64,000 bases of DNA from Ziziphus jujuba (lineage: Eukaryota > Streptophyta > Magnoliopsida > Rosales > Rhamnaceae), in NCBI RefSeq assembly GCF_031755915.1, contig NC_083387.1, forward strand, positions 12,669,001 through 12,733,000, written 5' to 3'. The notes beneath the pieces are model-generated. The model was not told the DNA's origin, searched no databases, and saw only the letters and a list, made by a program, of their open reading frames with translations. This document shows, piece by piece, positions 1,694 through 49,940 of this stretch. Each line of letters opens with the position of its first letter. The stretch's first letter is position 1. A program made the position numbers and the translations under genes.

Positions 1694-1701
1694 TATAAAT
1701 A
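1694..1701 (+). promoter_or_regulatory. TATA box of peptide copy 1
   Basis: TATAAATA lies 121 bp upstream of the ATG at 1822. It sits in a context (ctttaccctcaaccgttataaatagg) that is shared with 39361-39980 and 43921-43950 at the two paralogous loci. Conservation of the same core promoter at all three copies supports a real transcription start nearby. Confidence 0.6.
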
Positions 1702-1821
1702 GGGCATGTCTTGCCACTCCTTAATTATACTAAGCATAAAAGGAATCCTTCCATTAAAAAAAAAAAAGAAAAGCAAACGAAATTTAAGTCCCTTTGTGAT
1801 CCCTATATGGTTTGCATACCA

Positions 1822-3439
1822 ATGGCTAGGGAGATAATCAATTATCCTTCCTTTTCTTTTGTTTTAATTGTTTCTCTACTCTTGTGCTTCTCACTTCCAT
1901 CCTTTCAAGGTCGATCATTAATCAATGGCTCAAGGCCTAACAAAGTGTATATCAATATCAAAGGGATTAAAAGTTCATTCATTAATGGGAACCATTTAGA
2001 ACCAAGTTTGGATAAAGGACATAGTTTTTGAAGCTTTCAAGCTCTACAAGAAGCTAAAAATTTTGGTACATATGCTTGTCCTAGCCCAGGTGAAGGATAT
2101 ATACCTGAAAGTCTACAAATTTTTTCAAGGGGATACAAATTTTGGTACAAATTCTAATCCTAGTCTGGGAGAAAGGCACATACCTAAAAGCCTTCAAACA
2201 TTTCAAGGAGCTATAAATTTTGGTATGAATCTGGTCCTAGTTTGGGGTGAAGGGTACATACCAGAAAGCCTTCAAACACTTCAAGATGCTATAAATTTTG
2301 GTACAAATTCTGGTCATAGTCTAGGTGAAGGGCACATACCTGAATGCCTTCAAACACTCCAAGGAGCTACAAAAGTTCAAGGTGCTATAAATTTTGGTAC
2401 GAATTCTGGTCCTAGTCCTGATGAAGGGCATATACGAGAAAGCCTTCAAATAATTCAAGGTGCTAAAAATTTTGGTATGAACTCTAGTCCTTGTCCAGGT
2501 GAAGGGCACATACCAGAAAGCCTTTAAGTAATTCAAAGAGCTAGAAATTTTGGTACAAACTCTGGTCCTAGTCCTGGTGAAGGGCACATACTTGAAAGTC
2601 TTCAAACCTTTCAAGTAGCTACAAATTATGGTACGAATTCCGGTTCGAGTCCAGGTGAAGGGCACATACCTAAAAGCCTTCATGCATTTCAAGGAGCTAT
2701 AAATTTTGGTAAGAATTCTAGTCCTAGTCTGGGTGAAGGGCACATACCTGAAAGCCTTCAAACACTTCAAGAAGCTATAAATTTTGGTACAAATTTTGGT
2801 CCTAGCCCTGATGAAAGGCATATACCTGAAAGCCTTCAAGCATTTCAAAGAGCTACAAACTTTGGTACAAATTCTGGTCCTAGCCCAGGTGAAGGACACA
2901 TACTTGAAAGCCTTTAAAAATTTTAAGAAGTAACAAATTCTAGTATAAATTCTGGTCCTAGCCTGGGTGAAAGGCACAAACCTGAAAACCTTCAAACACT
3001 TCAAGAAGTTAAAGATATTGGTACAAATTCTGGTCCTAGCCCAGGTGAAGGGCACATACCTAGAAGCCTTCAAACATTTCTAGGACGTATAAATTTTGGT
3101 ATAAATGCTAGTCCTAGCCCAGGAGAAGGACATATACCTGAAAGCCTTCAAACAATTCAAAAAGTTACAAACTTTGGTACGAATTTTGGTCCTAGTCCGG
3201 GTGAAGGGAACATTCCTGAAAGCCTTCAAACTTTTCAAGGAGCTATAAATTTTGGTACAAATTATGGTCCTAGCCCGGGTGAAGGGCACATACCTAAAAG
3301 CTTTCAAAAACTTCAAGGGGCTATAGATTTTGGTACAAATTTGGGTTTTAACTCGAATGGAAATCACATACCTTGAAGCCTTCAAACGCTTTAAGGAGCT
3401 ATAGATTTTGGTCCTAGCTCAAATGAAGAACATGACTGA
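1822..3439 (+). pseudogene. Multi-repeat CEP/PIP-like secreted peptide precursor, disrupted
   Basis: From the ATG at 1822 the first 69 codons give a short basic start, a strongly hydrophobic segment (residues about 11-24, FVLIVSLLLCFSL) and a likely cleavage region near FQGRS. This is a typical secretory signal peptide. The reading frame then runs into tandem 26-residue blocks whose core is NFGTNSGPSPGEGH. The ending SPGxGH matches CEP peptides, and SGPSP..GH resembles PIP peptides; both are small secreted hormones read by leucine-rich-repeat receptor kinases. Disruptions are a TGA at 2029-2031, an extra T in the run 2120-2125 that shifts the frame, TAA at 2525, 2915 and 2924, TGA at 3374 and TAA at 3392. 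The final in-frame stop is 3437-3439. Most nonsense codons replace CAA or GAA of the linker. A 69-residue secreted product ending PSLDKGHSF is still possible. Family assignment is inference from the motif alone. Confidence 0.65.
2041..3437 (+). repeat. 78-bp coding tandem array, about 18 units
   Basis: The unit is 78 bp and reads as 26 codons: a linker like PESLQTLQGAI followed by the core NFGTNSGPSPGEGH and I. I count about 18 cores. Ten or more keep PSPGEGH or a one-residue variant. Some have diverged to NPSLGERH, GHSLGEGH or GFNSNGNH. One linker has an 18-bp internal insertion near 2370-2388. The last unit is short (DFGPSSNEEHD). The linker and core keep their phase through nearly all units, so the array grew while it was coding. 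Confidence 0.9.
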
Positions 3440-8832: not shown

Positions 8833-9479
8833 TTGTAGTGGATGACATAAGGAAAAGTCTCAATGAATTCAATCCACCTTCCATGCTTTTGGTTAAGCTT
8901 TCCTTAGCTTTTGATGTGATTTAAAGATTCATGATCTGTGTGAATCACAAATTCCCTCGGCATCAAGTAATGTTGCCATGTCTCCAAAACTCGAACTAAA
9001 GTATACGTCTCTTTATCGTAGGTTGGATAATTCAATGTCACTCCATTCAACTTCTCACTAAAGTATGCTATAGGTCTTCCTTCTTGCATCAACACAGCTT
9101 CAATACCTATACGTGAAACATCACATTCAATTTTAAAAGTTTTTGAAAAATTTGGTAAAACCAATAAAGAAGCATTAGTTAATTTTTCTTTCAAAATATT
9201 AAAAGGCTTCTCTTGTGCTTCTCCCCATTGGAATCCCACATTCTTCTTCACTATTTCAGTCAATGGTGCTGCAATAGTACTAAAATCCTTGACAAATCTT
9301 CGGTAAAAGCTAGTCAAACCATGAAAACTTCTTACCTGGGTGATAGTAGTAGGTTTCGGCCACTCTTGGATTGTTTTGACCTTGGATTGGTCAACTTTAA
9401 TTCTTATAGCACTTATAAAAAATTCTAAAAATCCTAGCATATCTTTACAAAAATCACACTTTTTAAAATTAGCAAACAA
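8833..9479 (-). pseudogene. Gypsy RNase H domain
   Basis: The frame starts with [18 protein letters not shown]. It passes through the connection ([40 protein letters not shown]) into RNase [29 protein letters not shown] and HTDHESL. The retroviral-type RNase H aspartates appear as CD and HTD. After a stop near 8904 the homology continues as [20 protein letters not shown] to about 8833. It then joins directly to the polyprotein tail, so the integrase is deleted at about 8832. Confidence 0.85.
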
Positions 9480-9519
9480 TCTTTCTTTCCTAAGTACTTC
9501 TAAACTAACCTAAGATATC

Positions 9520-10090
9520 CTACATGATTATTAAGTTCCTACTATATACAAGAATATCATCAAAATAAACAACCTCAAATTTTCCAATGAATGGATGCAT
9601 GACATGGTTCATTAACTTCGTGAAAGTACTAGGTGCATTAGTTAACCCAAAATGCATTACTAACCACTCATATAAACCATATTTTGTGTTAAGTACAATT
9701 TTCCACTCATCTCCCTCTTTCATTCTTATTTGATGATACTCACTCCTAAGGTCAATTTTTGAAAACATGTATGTACCATCTAATTCATCAAGCATATCAT
9801 CTAATCTAGGAATATGATGTCTATACTTAATAGTTATGTTGTCTACACACATACACCATGAACCATCTTTTTTAGACATTGATAACACAGATACAGCACA
9901 TGGACTCATGCTTTTCTTAATGTGACCTTTTTTAAGTAATTCATTTACCTGGCTTTGTAATTCTTTTGTCTCCTCGGGATTACTTCTATATGCAGACCTA
10001 TTAGGAATTGTGGTTTTGGGAATAAAATCTATTTGGTGTTCGATCCCTCGAATAGGTGGTAAATTATTAGGTATCTCTTCCAGTTATATA
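9520..10090 (-). pseudogene. Gypsy reverse transcriptase
   Basis: Minus-strand frames give [49 protein letters not shown], the palm motif [28 protein letters not shown] and the catalytic box [11 protein letters not shown]. This is the standard order of a Ty3/Gypsy reverse transcriptase. The YFDD box is intact, but stops flank the domain on both sides. Confidence 0.88.
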
Positions 10091-18541: not shown

Positions 18542-20156
18542 TTAAAGATTGCTCCCCGCAACATCCACAACGAACCTGTATCTAACATCGTTCTTCTCCA
18601 ATCTTTCAAATGCTTCATTAATATAGTCCATCTTGATGGTTTCAATCATGGAAGTTACGTTCTTCTCCCTGCAGAACTCAAGCATTTCTTCTTGTTCTTT
18701 CATGCTTCCCACAAAACTCCCAGTAATCATCCTCCTCCCTACAGGGAAAAAAATAATAATAATAATTAAAAAAAATAAAAAAAAAGAAGAAAAAAAGAAA
18801 AAGAAAAAGAAGCACAATTCAACAAAAGAAATGAGCACCCAATATAGAAAATCTTCAAACCGAGAAACGAATTTCCATATCTAAATAAAAAACATAACAA
18901 AATAAATAAATAAGAAAAGAAAAACATAGCTACTCACCAAGCATAACCATGGGGGAGACGAATTGCAGAGGGGTATTAATAACACCCATCAAGATCAGCT
19001 TCCCATCGAGCTTCAACAAAGAAAGGTAAGGCTCAAGGGGGTGGAAAACAGGGACTGTATCAATAACGTAATCGAATGAATCAGCAGCTTGTTGCATGCG
19101 AGTGGTGTCCGAGCTGACCAGGTAATCATCAGCACCAAGATGTTCAAGAGCTTCCACTTTCTTCTTCTCAGAAGAGCTTATCACAGTCACATGGTGTCCC
19201 ATTGCTTTTGCTATTAACACCCCCATATGTCCAACACCTCCAAGACCCAATATTGCTCCTTTCAATCCACTCTGTTTCAGCCCAAAATGAGTCAGTGGAC
19301 TGTAAACTGTCACTCCAGCGCAAAGTAGCGGCGCCGCTTGTTCCGGCACCAATCCATCGGAAATCTTCACCACAAACCTTAAAAAAAAAAGCCAAAAAAA
19401 AAAAAATTAATATCAACTAATTGGGAATGGTATTTTCTTTGTTTAATAAGAAATTTGGTACATGTGGGGGTTTTGTATATACTTTTGATGGACGACCATG
19501 GCTTCGGCAAACCCTCCTTGAGTGGGTTTTCCGTCGGTATAGACATCGTTATAGGACCAGATTTTTTTGCTGCAGTACTGCTCGTTGTCGGTTTTGCATG
19601 GATGGCAGTTTCTGCAGCAACCCACAGTGCATCCCACACCCACTGTGTCTCCTGCTTTGAACTTTGTAACCTCCGATCCAACTTCCACAACCTCACCAAC
19701 CACTTCGTGCCTATCATCCAATCAATTTTATATAACGCATAATTAATAAACAAATATAAAAAATTTTATAATTAAGAAGCGAAGGAGTAGAACAGAGAAA
19801 ACAGATAGCCTTTTTTTTTTTTTTTAATTACCCAGGAACCATGGGGTAGTGGGACATTCCAAGATCATTTTTGGCCTGGTGAAGATCAGTGTGGCAAACT
19901 CCACAGAAAGTGACTTTGAGGTATACATCTTCTGGTCCTGTGTTCCTGCATTGATTTTGTTTATATCTTTAAAACAAACTTTTTTTTTTTTTTTTTTTTT
20001 GGGTTGAAGATTATTTAATCAGAATAATTCAAAAGGAGAAAAATATTGATGGTCACGAAAGACTTACCTAAGAGTGTATGTATAGGGTGAAAGAATCCCA
20101 GATGAGTCTCTTGCTGCCCAACCTTTTATGGTTCTTTCAGTTTCAAGGCCGCCCAT
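18542..20156 (-). CDS. CAD: Cinnamyl alcohol dehydrogenase (five exons)
   Basis: The encoded enzyme reduces cinnamaldehydes to monolignols with NADPH in the cytosol, the last step of lignin precursor synthesis. Exons on the minus strand are 20156-20068, 19945-19832, 19710-19483, 19377-18938 and 18738-18542. They join in phase at GT-AG sites to 355 residues, the usual CAD length. The start is [20 protein letters not shown]. Catalytic zinc motifs are [10 protein letters not shown] and GHEVVGE. The structural zinc loop [17 protein letters not shown] has four cysteines. The Rossmann motif is GLGGVGHMG, and the following SSSEKKK fits NADP preference. The C-terminus is [12 protein letters not shown]. 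Sequence blocks match bona fide lignin CADs better than the broader sinapyl/mannitol-type relatives. No disruption is visible, so I take it as functional. Confidence 0.96.

Positions 20157-20804: not shown

Positions 20805-20893
<89 letters not shown>
20805..20893. repeat. (CT)n microsatellite
   Basis: An uninterrupted CT run of 89 bp lies about 650 bp upstream of the CAD start codon. Perfect runs of this length are usually polymorphic. Confidence 0.98.
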
Positions 20894-38520: not shown

Positions 38521-39377
38521 TAGATGTTGTTCTGACATGATAGTGACTTTGTTCAAACAACAGTAAAAATTGTCAAACTAGATATTTTTACTTTAACAAA
38601 TTTGGTAAAAATCATATCAAAACATAATCAAAATGCCTAGAGTATAAAAACTAGTAAATATGCAAAGGTCAGCGAAAAACATAGATAGTGTGGAATAGTG
38701 TGTGCTTAATCACCTAGATATATATATATGAGCTCTCTAAGTTACTTACTTTATCTAATAGGGATTTGATCTTCATGCTTAGGTATTGATTGAGATTGAT
38801 ATTTTACAACTATGTATTTTGAATCATACAAATTTACCAACACACAAAAAACTAACACAACAATGTTAATTCTTAGAATATAATATTAAATAAGAACAAT
38901 AAAGGTCCTAATTAAAGTAATTAATATACACCAACATCCAAGAATTAACTTTAATTTGACTATAAGGACATAAACATGAGCAGTTTTTGCCTTATGTAAT
39001 TAATGCGCTCTATCATCCCAGAATTAATTTAAATTTAATAATATTAAAGTTACTAAAATATTGATAAAATTTATTTACCAAATGGTGTGATGGATGATGT
39101 GGTAATTTTAAATTAGTTTTTTTTTATTCATTTATCCATTTAAAAATTTACTTATCCATATTTAAGTTATATTAAAATGTTAATCAATAATATTTTAACA
39201 TATGTTATTTCATAAATATTTTGACATATATAACATCATTGATTTTAGTTTTACTATAGGGATATGGATATGTACATCTATCCTACTATATGAAATTTTG
39301 AACAATATTGCTCTTTTTAGTCAAATAATTTGCCTTTCTCCTTGTTCTTGAAACCATATCACTATCTTTACCCTCAA

Positions 39378-39958
39378 TAGAAATGTGAACGGGGAGGGAC
39401 AGGGCCAGTTTTTAAAATCCCCTCCCCATTCCCGCGGAAAATTTTCTATTCCATCCCACGGTTTTCTCCGTTTCTTTATAGATGGGGCAGGGACGCGGAT
39501 TCCCCAATGGGGGATGGAGTGGGGCGGTTTTCTCCGCTTTTTTTTTTAATTTTTTTTAATTTTTTTATCATTCATATAATTTTTTTTTAGAAATTTATAT
39601 AATTTTTTTAATGAATAAAATGTAAATAATGTGATTAAAATGCAACAAAAATATAATAAAATACATTGATGTCGGTGGCCAAAGTTGAGGGCTTAGTGTT
39701 GGAGCTTGTAAGAAAAAAAGAAAATGATATTTTACATAAATGAAACTAGAAAAAAAATTTTAAAAAAATCATAAATATATATACCGGGCCAGGGTTGGGA
39801 CGGGGTGTTTACTCCCCGTCCTCGACCCATTCCCAGTTCAGGTTTTAAACCTTTGCTCCGAGTCCGTCCCATAATTCCGATTTTTCGAGAAAAAAACTGC
39901 TCCGTTAGGGACGGTGCCCCGTGGGGATCAGGTCGTGCGGGGCAAATTGCCATTCCTA
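39378..39958. mobile_element. hAT-like MITE in the promoter of peptide copy 2
   Basis: This GC-richer 581-bp insertion starts tagaaatgtgaacgggg. Its other end, read on the opposite strand, starts taggaatggcaa, giving imperfect terminal inverted repeats of about 12 bp. The flanks are accctcaa (39370-39377) and accttcaa (39959-39966), an 8-bp target duplication with one mismatch, as hAT transposons make. G- and C-rich 'ggggcgg' arms are typical of a common plant MITE group starting TAGGGATG. It has no coding capacity. It separates the conserved 'ctttaccctcaa' block from the TATA-like box. Confidence 0.75.
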
Positions 39959-39970
39959 ACCTTCAACCAT

Positions 39971-39979
39971 CATAAATAG
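39971..39979 (+). promoter_or_regulatory. Degenerate TATA box of peptide copy 2
   Basis: CATAAATAG stands where TATAAATAG occurs in copies 1 and 3. The first T of the box is changed to C. Confidence 0.45.
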
Positions 39980-40076
39980 GACCTGCCTTGCCTCTCCTTG
40001 GTTGTTCTAAGCATAAAAGCAAGACGAAAAGAAATTTAAAGCCCTAGCGATCACCATTTGATTTGCATACCGACCA

Positions 40077-40320
40077 ATGGCTATAGAAATGATCAATGGC
40101 TCAGCGTCTTACAAAGAGTATTCGGGTATTAAAGTGATAAGAAGTTTATTCATCACTAAAAATTGCCTAGGACCAAGTCTCGATGAAACCTGGAAGACTT
40201 CAAAATCTTCAACAAGCTACAAGATTTGATCCTAGCATGAGCTTTCAAACTTTTCAAGGAATCACAAGATTTGGTCCTAACCTGTGTGGTGCAAAACATT
40301 CGGTAGGCAAGGTTGGTCCT
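40077..40320 (+). pseudogene. Peptide locus copy 2, signal peptide deleted
   Basis: The ATG at 40077 corresponds to 1822 of copy 1. Copy 1 reads gagataatcaat, then the signal peptide, then ttaatcaatggctca. Copy 2 reads gaaatgatcaatggctca. The signal peptide was therefore removed between two copies of ATCAAT. A 50-codon frame ends at 40229 and includes KNCLGPSLDETW, matching NHLEPSLDKGH of copy 1. In another frame two array-like units follow (RFDPSM and RFGPNLCGAKH), up to about 40310. It is neither secreted nor in frame with its units. Confidence 0.7.
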
Positions 40321-43056: not shown

Positions 43057-43937
43057 ATCAAGTTTGCATCAATTCGATCTATGGTTTTAGTATCATGTCA
43101 TCATTTATTAGCCATTAAATTACTCTGAGACTGAGATTTAAAAATCAATCGATAATCAAATATGAACTTATTTACATTCTATAGTCATATTTAAGAAAAG
43201 TGAATTATATAGGGATCTGGTAAATTATAAATATATTTTTAAATTTCACCTTTTTAAGCTATCCATTGGTAGATAAAAGAAGTTTTGATGATAAGACTAT
43301 CAAGCTGATTTGATGTGAGCCTAATTGTATTTACTGTTCCTTAGGTTCCTATACTATTCATTTACTTTAAATAGTATGTTAGTATGTCACTAAATCCATT
43401 TGAATTATTAATTAACGTTTATAGCCCCTGAAGCGATCTAATAACTAATAAAAGGAGTCTTGATGCTGAAACTATCAGATCGAACTAATGTGAGCTTGAT
43501 TCTTTTTCTCTTTCCTTACAATTACACACATACAAATAATGAAGTACTATGTCCATGAGAAGACAATCTAGCTGCAAAATCAACTATTTCCTATGTAGAT
43601 AATTGAGTTCGAATCTCCCAACACCTAGGATAAAAAAAGAAAAGAAAAAGTATTTACATTATTATTTCTTGAGTATAATACTATTTATGTCCTAATTAAG
43701 TAATTAATATACACCAACATCCAAGAATTAACTTTAATTTGACTATAAGGACATAAGTAGGAACAACTATCATGTTAAATAACTCATGTCAACATCCAAG
43801 AATTAACTTTAATTCAATGCTAGGGAATAGGAAAAATATATATATATCTTACTACATGAACTTGTAGGTTTTAGTCAAACAATTTGCTTTTCTCCTTCTT
43901 CCCCCAAAACAGTATCACTATTTTTCCCCTTGACCAT

Positions 43938-43945
43938 TATAAATA
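43938..43945 (+). promoter_or_regulatory. TATA box of peptide copy 3
   Basis: TATAAATA lies about 100 bp upstream of the ATG at 44040, in the same context as the copy 1 box. Confidence 0.55.
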
Positions 43946-44039
43946 GGACCTACTTTGCACTCCTTAGTTATATTAAGTGCAAAAGGAAGCCAAAAAAGAA
44001 ACTTAAAGGCTTAATGATCGCTATTTGATTTGCATACCA

Positions 44040-44375
44040 ATGGCTAAAAGAATTATCAGCACTTTTATCCTTCTCCTTTGTTTTAGTTGTTTTTCTACTT
44101 TTGTGCTTTTCACTTCCTTCCCATGGAGATGGCTCACTGTAATTGCCCAAAGTCTCACAAAGTGTACCTGGGTGTCGAAGAAACCGGAAGTACATTCATC
44201 ATTGAGAACTGTTTAGCAAAAAGTCTAGATAAAGTGCATAAACTTGGAAACCTTGAAACTTTTTAAGTAGATGCAAGTTTTGGTTCTAGCCCATGTAAAG
44301 GACACATACATACCTTGAAGCCTTCAAAATTTTTCAAGGAGATACAAAATTTGGTCCTAGCTTAGATGCATGACA
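44040..44375 (+). pseudogene. Peptide locus copy 3, frameshifted
   Basis: The ATG at 44040 opens 58 codons with a clear signal peptide (MAKRIISTFILLLCFSCFST). The frame then leaves the ancestral one: homology to copy 1 continues as nucleotides, but the encoded protein ends at 44216 in an unrelated basic tail. Array-like units remain downstream in other frames: SFGSSPCKGH at about 44278-44305 and KFGPSLDA at about 44349-44370. Only two units are present, against about 18 in copy 1. Confidence 0.7.
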
Positions 44376-44400
44376 TTGCTTAAGATATAAATATTAACTA

Positions 44401-45567
44401 TGTTTTAACAAGCACCTTTTTATGCTGCTCTCCATGTGTAATTGGATGGTCGTTCCCCATTATGATAAAATTTTGTATATAAAACCAACCTTAAAGAAGG
44501 TAGGTATTAGAATCCGATAAAGCATACAAAAGCTACCAATTCATATAGGTAATTAATCACCTATTATCTCAAAATGTAGAATTGTAGGCTAACAAGAGTT
44601 GGGGCTACCTGCGCATAGCCTATACCAATCATACACTGTGGTATTCTATCATTACATTGTTGGTTTGAGCTAGGTAATGGAAAAGATTAAGGTGGGGATC
44701 ATGGTTTGCTTCATTACTGCTTCCATGACCTTGCTAACAAGATATGAATGGTGAAGCTAAAGCAATACTAAACAAGTGAGAAAAGCCCTATATATTCTAT
44801 TATAACTAAGTTACTTTCTCTCATTTTAAAGGAGAACAAAATTAGGCGTAAGGAGATTCAATCGCTATTGGTAGTTCACCCGCTAAGGGAGCATCAAAAG
44901 GAGGTTATTTATTTTGTATTGTTAGGTCGTAAATGATTAGATGCCTTATTTTTGTCTTCATTCTTCCTTGAGAACAGGTTTAAATTCAGAGATGGAAAAA
45001 AGTCATATGACTACTCCTAACAATTAGTTCATATCCTATTCTTTCCTCGCTAGTGAGTTGCATTGAGTTAGTGAAATCTTGTAGAAGTGTCGAAGCCCTG
45101 TATGCTATAATGCTAAGCCAAGGATGCTCCACTTTAATATTTGGTGCATTCACCTTCTAGGGGATTAATCCTGAAGTGATACTCCAAATTAACTCAACAG
45201 TTGTGCTTAGTTCGAACAATGCTGTTAGTATGTGTCATTACTTTCAAGATGTGTGTAGAAGTTGTTGCAATTGCCTCCATGGAGGATGTTTTCAATATTT
45301 GAAACATGTGCAGTTCTTTTATCTATTTTGTCTTCTAATTAAACGTTAAAGGTTTATTCATTCTTACAACTATCTTTTTGAAGCAGATAGTTCACAATGC
45401 TTATTATATAGAAAAAGTAAAATCCAACCCATGAAATACTTATTCAAATCCCTCTAGTTTAAGTATGCAAGAATTAAGGAAATTCAAGCATCTGTATTTT
45501 CATCTTAAGACACCATCCATGAGGAAAGGTTTTACACTCCTATTTTTTACCCAAATTGCCCCAATTT
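44401..45567. other. No recognisable gene
   Basis: Less AT-rich than the flanks, with many short frames and no motif I recognise. It may be old transposon sequence. Confidence 0.35.
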
Positions 45568-45987
45568 ATCTCCCCTCGAGTTAGGGAAGAGGGGCCTTCG
45601 CATCCTAGATAGCGTGTCCCTTCATCCTTAGAATTTGCCTTAGAAACTTCTTATCTTCACGACATTCTTTTACCAAAAACAGAGATGGAGGTGGATTTAG
45701 TTCAAGAATAGATTGAAGAAGAAGTCATTGACATTTTGAGGTTCGAGTTGTATAATGAGAAGGAAGCTTATGTATTGATCTCCCTCTAGGTTAGGGAAGA
45801 GGGGCCTTCGCATCATAGAGGACATGTTCCTTCATCCTTAGAATCTGCTTTAGAAGCTACCTATTTTCACAATGTTCTTTTCGCCAAAAACAAAGATGGA
45901 GGTGGATTTAGTTCAAGGGCAGATCGAAGAAGAAGTCATTAACATTGTGAGGTTCGAGTTGCATAATGAGGAGGAGGCCCATTCATT
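45568..45987. repeat. 210-bp tandem duplication
   Basis: Units 45568-45777 and 45778-45987 share gttagggaagaggggccttc, gatggaggtggatttagttc and 'gaagaagaagtcatt', with roughly one difference per ten bases. The unit is a multiple of three, but no frame stays open through both units. Confidence 0.85.
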
Positions 45988-47717: not shown

Positions 47718-49940
47718 ATGACAAATCCAGTCTAATGGTTGTTCTCCACTAACCGTAAGAATATAAGGATTCTGTATTTCATCTTTGGTGTTATTACTTG
47801 AGTGATGGAAACATGCTTCTCAGTATCGATTTGTATGGAACTAGCATAACCCCAATATCTAATTCTTGGTGGGAATCATTAACTTTATAATGTTTTAATA
47901 ACATCTCACACTTTTTTAATGATATTTTTTTTATGGTTATATTGACGATGATAAGTGGATCTGGTAATTAGTCAGTTTTGATAGTTATAGGTGCATCTGA
48001 CATGGCATTACACAATTAATTGACACTTCATTCTCGTTGTTGCCACCAAGTTTTTTTCTCCTATTAAGCTCAGTCTTAGTAGAAGTAGGTAGTGGCATTA
48101 GGCGGATGGTCTATCCTTCCTTAAATGGTATTACCAGGCATTGTGAAGGAGCTGTTGATTTAGCAATTTATAGTCTTTATTTATCTAGAGTTTCATCCAT
48201 TTTAGGCTCTATCAATTTTATAACAACTATCTCCAACATGCATGGACCCAAAATTAATATGCATAAATCACCTCTACTTGTGTGGTTCATTCTAGTGACA
48301 ACATTCTTATTTTTATTATCATTTCTAGTACCGGCAGAGGCAATTACCATATTGTTAACCAACTCAAACTTTTGTATGACATAATCGTACTCGTACTATG
48401 TTCATAAGTGGTTTTCTAGTAAAATCCCAATCTAGAAAAAATGGAGTATCTAAGACACAACCAATAGGTAACCAATAAAAGAAGTCTAGCAAAAATATCA
48501 GAGAATACACATAACAACTTACCTTAAATCTTTCTGTGAGTGGCTGATTGGAATTATTGATGGTGATAAAACTCTTCAAGTTAGTAAACAAGGATATACT
48601 TCTTCTCAAAATTACTAAGGGACTTGAAAATCTACTATTACTATGATATATCAAACATATGCTTGGTGGAATTATTAAAATTCAATCAAGTTCTAAAGCT
48701 TATCATTATCGACTAAATAATTAACTTGGTATGATTAAACTAATGAGTTGTATTAATGGTCATATACATTCAGCATGACTACTTCAATGACAACATATTT
48801 TTTTAGTGCATGATATTCTTGTAAGTCTACCTATTACGCTAGATGCTCAATCAAATTGGTTAGGTGGATTCTTTGATGTTGATGGTACCATTGGTATCGT
48901 TATGAAGCATCAACTACCTTAACTAAGTATTCGAGTAACCAATAAACTTTTACTAGATGTAAAGTCTTATAGGGTGGTTTTTGGAGAAAATATCTACTCT
49001 GATAGTATTCAAAATGGTTATTATCAATGGTCTATACAAAATTAAAAAGATGTCATCATGATGCTAGATTACTTTAAATCAAGAAATTTTTGAAGTCATA
49101 AATCATGATGATTCTTCCTTATTGAGGAATATTACAATCTTTATAATCTTAACGCACTTAAATATGATAGTAGTCATCATAAAGTATGGCTAGCTTTCAT
49201 AGAAAAATGGAATAAGTTGATGATATAGTCCACCTATCTTCTATTCATTTGTTTATATTAGTAGATAGCGAAGCATCTTGAAGTTTATTTTCTCATTCTA
49301 CCCAGATCCAGTATCATAAGTCATATAGTCTCGATTTAAAAAAAAAAAAAAATCAATATTTGGAAATCTAGGCATGGTTTATGGCATGATCAATATAGGT
49401 GTTCTTAGATTTCTTGTTTGGGCTCATCATATGTTTATTATGACCTTAGACATTGATAACCTTGCCTACTTCATCGCAGCTATTGTGATAATAGTTGTCC
49501 CTCCTAGAATCAAAATCTTTAGTTGAAATATTACCATTAGGGACGGGGTTTGATATAATACAAAACACCCATATTATTTGTTGTAGGGTTCATATTTTTA
49601 TTCATCATAGGATGACTTACTGGAATAATCCAGATAAATTCAGGGTCAAACATTACTCTACATGATACTTACACATTTCTATTATTTACTTTCTATAGAA
49701 GTTGTTTCATGTTATTTGCAAGATTTTACCATTGGGTTGGTAAAATCTTTGGTTGGACATTCCTTGAAACTTTAGGCTAAACCCATTTTTGGATCACTTC
49801 TTTCAGAGTTAATCTGACCCACTTTACCATGGATTTCTTAGACTTTTGAGTATGTCACATTGCATGCTAAATTATCTAGATGCTTATGCTGGATGAAATG
49901 CCATTAGCAACTCAAGGTTGGAAAGTAGTTTATTTGTTTT
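47718..49940 (+). pseudogene. cox1: Mitochondrial cox1 inserted in the nucleus, heavily decayed
   Basis: Cytochrome c oxidase subunit 1 is normally encoded in the mitochondrion. Here the start is ATGACAAAT at 47718. Homology then runs through WLFSTN, LYFIFG, LGGNH, and an open stretch at 48037-48384 with [28 protein letters not shown] and AITILLTN. After an intron it resumes at about 49270 with SSIISHIVS, then [36 protein letters not shown] and a last recognisable piece near 49905. The spelling [11 protein letters not shown] is the plant form. Numerous stops and frameshifts show that it is non-functional and old. Part of exon 1 before the intron appears lost. Confidence 0.9.
48385..49255 (+). 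pseudogene. cox1 group I intron with LAGLIDADG homing endonuclease remnant
   Basis: Between the two cox1 parts the frames give WLIGIIDGDKTLQVSKQGYT (from 48541) and GGIIKIQSS..KAYHYRL (about 48664). They continue with MIKLMSCINGHI, then WLGGFFDVDGTIGIV (48857-48898) and RVTNKLLLDV. Two LAGLIDADG-type motifs and a GGxIKxRS..A.RYRL block are characteristic of the group I intron endonuclease found in cox1 of many flowering plants. The reading frame is broken by several stops. Confidence 0.8.

What the first reader, a model, noticed from the sequence alone, without database searches (positions are those of the whole stretch)
1822..3439. An 18-unit array encoding CEP/PIP-like peptides behind a signal peptide
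Each 78-bp unit encodes the same 26-residue block ending in a core like NFGTNSGPSPGEGH. The end SPGxGH is that of CEP hormones, and SGPSP..GH is close to PIP peptides, but the spacing fits neither family exactly. With about 18 cores it would release many peptide copies from one precursor. This may be an undescribed lineage-specific peptide family. This copy is now broken by six nonsense codons and one +1 shift.
Basis: partly seen in the sequence, partly recalled or inferred. Interest (0 to 1): 0.82.

Follow-up and report, generated by a model that had tools for sequence, protein, structure and literature searches.

The report
Dead plant hormone gene, 17-fold repeat
This is the wreck of a plant gene that seems to have encoded about 19 linked copies of a small secreted hormone-like peptide; intact relatives nearby encode only two, so it shows how such precursors can balloon inside a gene cluster and then die.

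Summary
The array is real: 17 full 78-bp units (2031-3375) behind a hydrophobic, signal-peptide-like N terminus (ATG 1822), between a degenerate first core (PSLDKGH, 2002-2022) and a last core lacking the unit's extra bases (3376-3439). Six nonsense codons and the +1 shift are confirmed; a -1/+1 pair was missed. 'Undescribed peptide family' is not supported: the consensus core's last ten residues, NSGPSPGEGH, equal those of tomato SlCEP10, and the spacing (Pro9, Pro11, GxGH) is that of group II CEPs. About 102-122 kb downstream lie three intact two-core paralogues (100-101 aa); two more degenerate relatives lie in the window. The unit corresponds to linker plus second core of the paralogues, so it most likely grew by unequal exchange inside one tandem duplicate. 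A whole-genome search matched it nowhere else, so it is not a dispersed satellite. Best reading: a dead, hyper-expanded precursor of the group II CEP / two-core PIP type. The passages I read mention at most seven CEP or six CLE cores per precursor. Evidence that the long form was ever coding is mixed, and no plant relatives could be searched.

The parts
1694..1702 (+). TATAAATAG, TATA-box-like, shared with the paralogues and with degenerate copy W3
   Evidence: alignment of upstream DNA; promoter function not tested
1822..1908 (+). start codon and signal-peptide-like hydrophobic N terminus, followed by GRSL
   Evidence: 61-63% protein identity of the 69-aa N terminus to three paralogues; hydropathy
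2002..2022 (+). degenerate first core PSLDKGH, counterpart of paralogue core 1
   Evidence: frame read; tblastn alignment
2029..2031 (+). first nonsense codon, just after the first core
2031..3375 (+). array of 17 full 78-bp units, consensus ESLQTFQGAINFGTNSGPSPGEGHIP, with five further nonsense codons (starts 2525, 2915, 2924, 3374, and 3392 just beyond), a +1 shift in unit 2, a -1/+1 pair in unit 3 and an in-frame 18-bp insertion in unit 5
3376..3439 (+). last core (FGPSSNEEHD) without the large extra piece of the unit, and terminal stop; counterpart of paralogue core 2
   Evidence: 81% identity over 64 alignment columns (3372-3433) to paralogue 12772784; stop at 3437
39282..40290 (+). degenerate relative W2: about 580 bp of extra DNA in its upstream part, signal-peptide part missing, remnants readable as three cores; end approximate
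43869..44397 (+). degenerate relative W3: N terminus and remnants readable as three cores, frame broken

Best explanation
A pseudogene of a plant secreted peptide-hormone precursor of the group II CEP / two-core PIP type. A tandem cluster of two-core precursors existed; in the branch that includes the three window copies the linker-plus-core segment was repeated, and in this copy it was amplified to 17 units between the original first and last cores by unequal exchange or slippage. That would give a secreted polyprotein of about 19 cores, whose prolines would be hydroxylated and whose linkers would be cut to release many ligands for a CEPR2- or RLK7-type receptor. It then lost its reading frame. 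Shown: array, homology, cluster, decay. Inferred: the amplification route, that the long form was ever translated, processing and receptor.
For: Homology of N terminus and 5' DNA to three intact two-core paralogues (71% over 459 columns). Unit DNA aligns to paralogue linker plus core 2; last core aligns there without the large gap. Period 26 residues against 24 between paralogue cores. Two further degenerate relatives in the window. Core identical in its last ten residues to tomato SlCEP10. Coding signal in the array: 112 non-synonymous changes against 126 expected, reached in 2 of 1000 simulations; in the alignment the only length changes are one 18-bp insertion and three single-base changes.
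Against: The three codon positions vary equally among units (P 0.52). Stops in units 1-17: 3 against 5.5 expected, not significant (P 0.19). One nonsense site occurs in two units (7 and 12), so it could predate a duplication. The simulation treats shared changes as independent, so its P is too small. The paralogues show no clear purifying selection among themselves (dN/dS 0.64, 1.12, 0.83 on 18-22 differences). No transcript, peptide or orthologue was seen.
Confidence: 0.6

Rival explanations
1. The two- or three-core copy died first and the array grew afterwards as a non-coding minisatellite inside the pseudogene; no many-core precursor ever existed.
For: Equal variation of codon positions, stop count not below chance, and both other window copies are also dead.
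Against: Fewer non-synonymous changes than simulated; the unit is a whole number of codons and the largest insertion is 18 bp; most units share one open frame.
Confidence: 0.28
2. The gene still makes a 69-aa secreted product ending just after the first core (PSLDKGHSF), with the array untranslated.
For: The frame from 1822 is open to the TGA at 2029 and upstream DNA is conserved.
Against: The core lacks the SPGEGH end; the same core is also degenerate in both dead copies.
Confidence: 0.06
3. The gene is intact and the breaks are sequencing or assembly errors.
For: The unit-2 shift lies in a T run.
Against: Six separate nonsense codons, three single-base length changes and decayed cores (14 of 17 units lack exact SGPSPGEGH); two sibling copies are dead too.
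Confidence: 0.04
4. A transposon-borne or dispersed satellite that happens to read as a peptide.
For: Tandem repeat with retroelement pieces elsewhere in the window.
Against: 9 of 9 genome matches lie in this array; DNA homology to genes nearby.
Confidence: 0.01

Closest known systems
Tomato SlCEP10 (YLGIKNSGPSPGEGH) and SlCEP11b (TLGGIKAGPSPGEGH); the latter letters begin the StPIP1 peptide of potato
   Same: Core: last ten residues of SlCEP10 equal the consensus unit NSGPSPGEGH (passages of PMC10515272 and PMC10667265). The two papers give CEP and PIP names to the same type of core.
   Different: Other N-terminal half of the core; no array of this size is described for them in what I read. 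Another tomato paper (PMC9562649) uses SlCEP11 for a different peptide.
Arabidopsis group II CEPs (CEP13-15)
   Same: PSPGxGH end with Pro9 and Pro11; they resemble PIPs.
   Different: They have V at position 8 and V or I at 13; here G and E.
Two-motif PIP/PIPL precursors (AtPIP2, AtPIP3, AtPIPL1)
   Same: SGPS and GxGH motifs, signal peptide, Arg after it, two motifs in the precursor as in the intact paralogues.
   Different: PIP1-type cores are one residue longer (SGPSPRGPGH); the paralogues carry an 8-residue tail after the last core.
Multi-core precursors: apple MdCEP4/5/10 (five to seven cores), AtCEP9 (five), rice CLE75 (six)
   Same: Regular cores with similar linkers in one precursor.
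   Different: Far fewer cores, other core sequences, not described as dead in the passages read.

Membership tests
Group II CEP | PSPGxGH end with Pro9 and Pro11 in His15 numbering | tested here: met
   Consensus unit core INFGTNSGPSPGEGH against PMC12494267 passages; met by the consensus, by 5 of 17 single units for PSPGEGH exactly
Group II CEP | Perception through CEPR2 | not testable with these tools
   no binding or response data
Canonical (group I) CEP | Pro4, Pro7 and Pro11 | tested here: not met
   Consensus has G4 and S7; Pro11 present
Canonical (group I) CEP | Score against the published CEP motif matrix | not tested
   matrix is in a supplement that could not be read
PIP/PIPL | SGPS motif and GxGH end | tested here: met
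   consensus SGPSPGEGH; paralogue core 2 SGPS[SP]GEGH
PIP/PIPL | Spacing of SGPSPRGPGH, core at the extreme C terminus | tested here: not met
   one residue shorter; array cores internal, paralogues end RKVRGKKH or RKVKGKKH after the core
PIP/PIPL | Signal peptide followed by a conserved Arg | tested here: inconclusive
   hydrophobic stretch and GRSL / GGRPL seen; no signal-peptide predictor
PIP/PIPL | Elicitor induction and RLK7 dependence | not testable with these tools
   no expression or binding data
CEP or PIP precursor in general | Intronless open reading frame | tested here: not met
   single stretch without need of an intron, but six nonsense codons and frame shifts; met by the three paralogues

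The most novel reading that the evidence does not exclude
For a time this plant lineage made a functional secreted polyprotein of about 19 near-identical CEP/PIP-type cores, a peptide-dose amplifier that arose by runaway amplification of one linker-core segment and was later discarded; intact many-core versions may survive in relatives.
Probability: 0.4. Interest if true: 0.62.

Novelty: new variant of a known kind. Interest (0 to 1): 0.42.

Why it matters
One cluster holds two-core, apparently three-core and about-19-core forms of one peptide precursor, so the birth of multi-copy hormone precursors can be followed step by step. It also shows that the same core is filed as CEP in one species and PIP in another, which matters for assigning receptors (CEPR2 or RLK7).

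Tried and rejected
Pfam scans of the N terminus and three array pieces and of three paralogues, the PIP-like neighbour and P0002 gave no match above a curated cut-off. Protein searches with the read-through (7992 candidates scored) and the three paralogues (1029 candidates) gave nothing at E 0.001; the PIP-like neighbour gave two (E 2.4e-6 and 5.2e-3), one of them a three-core PIP-like precursor of unnamed origin (P0002). I infer that plants are thinly held there, so these blanks say little. A 3-unit higher-order period offered by TRF has little support: mean unit distance is 0.198 at lag 3 and 0.202-0.204 at lags 1, 2 and 4. A weak tblastn match (E 0.2) in the 210-bp repeat at 45564-45975 is not counted as a relative. 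A 250-aa antisense frame (2321-3073 -) was set aside as a by-product of the repeat. A genome-wide census with the paralogue sequence was asked for 17 times and never answered; members outside C9:12580000-12899999 are known only from the N-terminal search (7 of 7 candidates scored) and the unit search.

The statement about the largest core numbers rests on paper searches of an open-access library and on passages of the papers named; it is not a proof of absence from print. Supplements could not be read. The two degenerate window copies did not appear at E 0.001; they come from the local search.

Full report
What is there. TRF reports a 78-bp array at 2031-3412. Aligning the stretch to the unit gives 17 full units, 2031-3375, and a shorter last piece. 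Majority unit: ESLQTFQGAINFGTNSGPSPGEGHIP. Before it stands a degenerate core PSLDKGH (2002-2022); after it a last core FGPSSNEEHD and a stop at 3437. Nonsense codons start at 2029, 2525, 2915, 2924, 3374 and 3392. Unit 2 carries the +1 shift, unit 3 a -1/+1 pair, unit 5 an in-frame 18-bp insertion. Units differ by 21% on average. Only 3 of 17 units keep SGPSPGEGH exactly.

Relatives in the same genome. The 69-aa N terminus has four matches in the whole genome at E 0.001, 7 of 7 candidates scored: itself and three places 102-122 kb further on, 61-63% identical. Those three encode open frames of 100-101 aa with a hydrophobic start, GGRPL, a variable part and two cores, for example TAPSPGEGH and ISGPSSGEGH, 24 residues apart. 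tblastn over 320 kb (C9:12580000-12899999) adds a truncated relative at 12789728-12789931, two degenerate relatives inside the window (about 39.3-40.3 and 43.9-44.4 kb), and, on the other strand about 77 kb downstream near 12747.65-12747.95 kb, a PIP-like frame of 102 aa with two cores. In an unrooted tree of six 5' ends the three window copies are split from the three intact ones with support 1.0, although raw identities are about 70% both within the window group and between groups. Each degenerate window relative has remnants that I read as three cores.

How the array arose. Unit DNA aligns to the linker plus second core of paralogue 12772784 with gaps of 1, 11 and 2 bp. The last piece, 3372-3433, aligns to the same part at 81% over 64 columns without the large gap. 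So the array lies between the counterparts of the original first and last cores, and its period is close to the distance between cores in the paralogues (26 against 24 residues). Amplification by unequal exchange or slippage between neighbouring cores is the simplest route; this is inference. Unit divergence (Jukes-Cantor 0.25) is well below the synonymous divergence between this copy and the paralogues (0.65-0.75), so the array is probably younger than the split.

Was the long form ever coding? The evidence is mixed. For: 112 non-synonymous changes against 126 expected, reached in 2 of 1000 simulations; only four length changes in the array. Against: the three codon positions vary equally (permutation P 0.52); 3 stops in units 1-17 against 5.5 expected is not significant (P 0.19); one nonsense site occurs in two units. 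Variants shared by units lean to silent changes, but not significantly (P 0.13). The simulation counts shared changes as independent, so its P is too small. The three paralogues show no clear purifying selection among themselves (dN/dS 0.64-1.12 on 18-22 differences).

What it is. The last ten residues of the consensus core equal those of tomato SlCEP10 (YLGIKNSGPSPGEGH); the other tomato peptide, TLGGIKAGPSPGEGH, also begins the StPIP1 peptide of potato (passages of PMC10515272 and PMC10667265). Arabidopsis group II CEPs share VPSPG(V/I)GH with Pro9 and Pro11, respond mainly through CEPR2 and resemble PIPs (passages of PMC12494267). Most group I CEPs have Pro4, Pro7 and Pro11 instead, so this is not a canonical CEP. 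PIPs have SGPS and GxGH, and three of eleven Arabidopsis PIP/PIPLs have two motifs; one paper says SGPS is not found in CEPs (passages of PMC4526919 and PMC4154866), which by its rule would make this core a PIP. The gene is best called a dead member of the group II CEP / two-core PIP continuum.

How unusual. Passages read mention five motifs in AtCEP9, up to four in a tomato CEP (PMC9562649), five to seven in apple MdCEP4/5/10 (PMC6387203) and six in rice CLE75 (PMC2254619). The survey of 916 CEP genes gives a mean of 1.34 domains per gene (PMC4197245: sections 3, 18 and part 1 of section 4 read); its maximum I did not see. About 19 is well above the numbers I saw. PMC10704477 was seen as abstract, outline and passages, PMC10773996 as one passage.

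Not a dispersed satellite. The tripled unit finds nine matches in the genome at E 0.001, all in this array, 11 of 11 candidates scored. The tool warns that only the best candidates are scored.

Limits. No reads, transcripts, signal-peptide predictor or plant relatives were available. Protein searches found nothing, but the collection seems to hold few plants. A genome-wide census with the paralogue sequence did not complete (17 attempts).

Noticed in passing
L012, C9:12747955-12747647 (- strand), about 77 kb downstream of the array gene: A 102-aa PIP-like open frame with two cores (SGPSQGGGGH and SGPSPGQGH), beside the cluster.
   Followed up: partly
window 39377-39959: About 580 bp of extra DNA in the upstream part of degenerate copy W2; identity not determined.
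   Followed up: no
window 45564-45975: Two-copy 210-bp tandem repeat, 85% matches, just after degenerate copy W3; no convincing link to the peptide array.
   Followed up: no
window 8904-9909 (-): Reverse transcriptase and RNase H pieces of a retroelement.
   Followed up: no
window 18930-19721 (-): Zinc-type alcohol dehydrogenase exons (Pfam ADH_zinc_N and ADH_N).
   Followed up: no
window 48037-48384 (+): A COX1 fragment, probably mitochondrial DNA inserted in the nucleus.
   Followed up: no
window 20805-20893: Perfect CT dinucleotide run of 44.5 copies.
   Followed up: no
protein P0002 (unnamed source): A PIP-like precursor with three cores (SGPSPGGGGH, SGPSQGGGH, SGPNPGQGH), found with the neighbouring PIP-like frame.
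   Followed up: no
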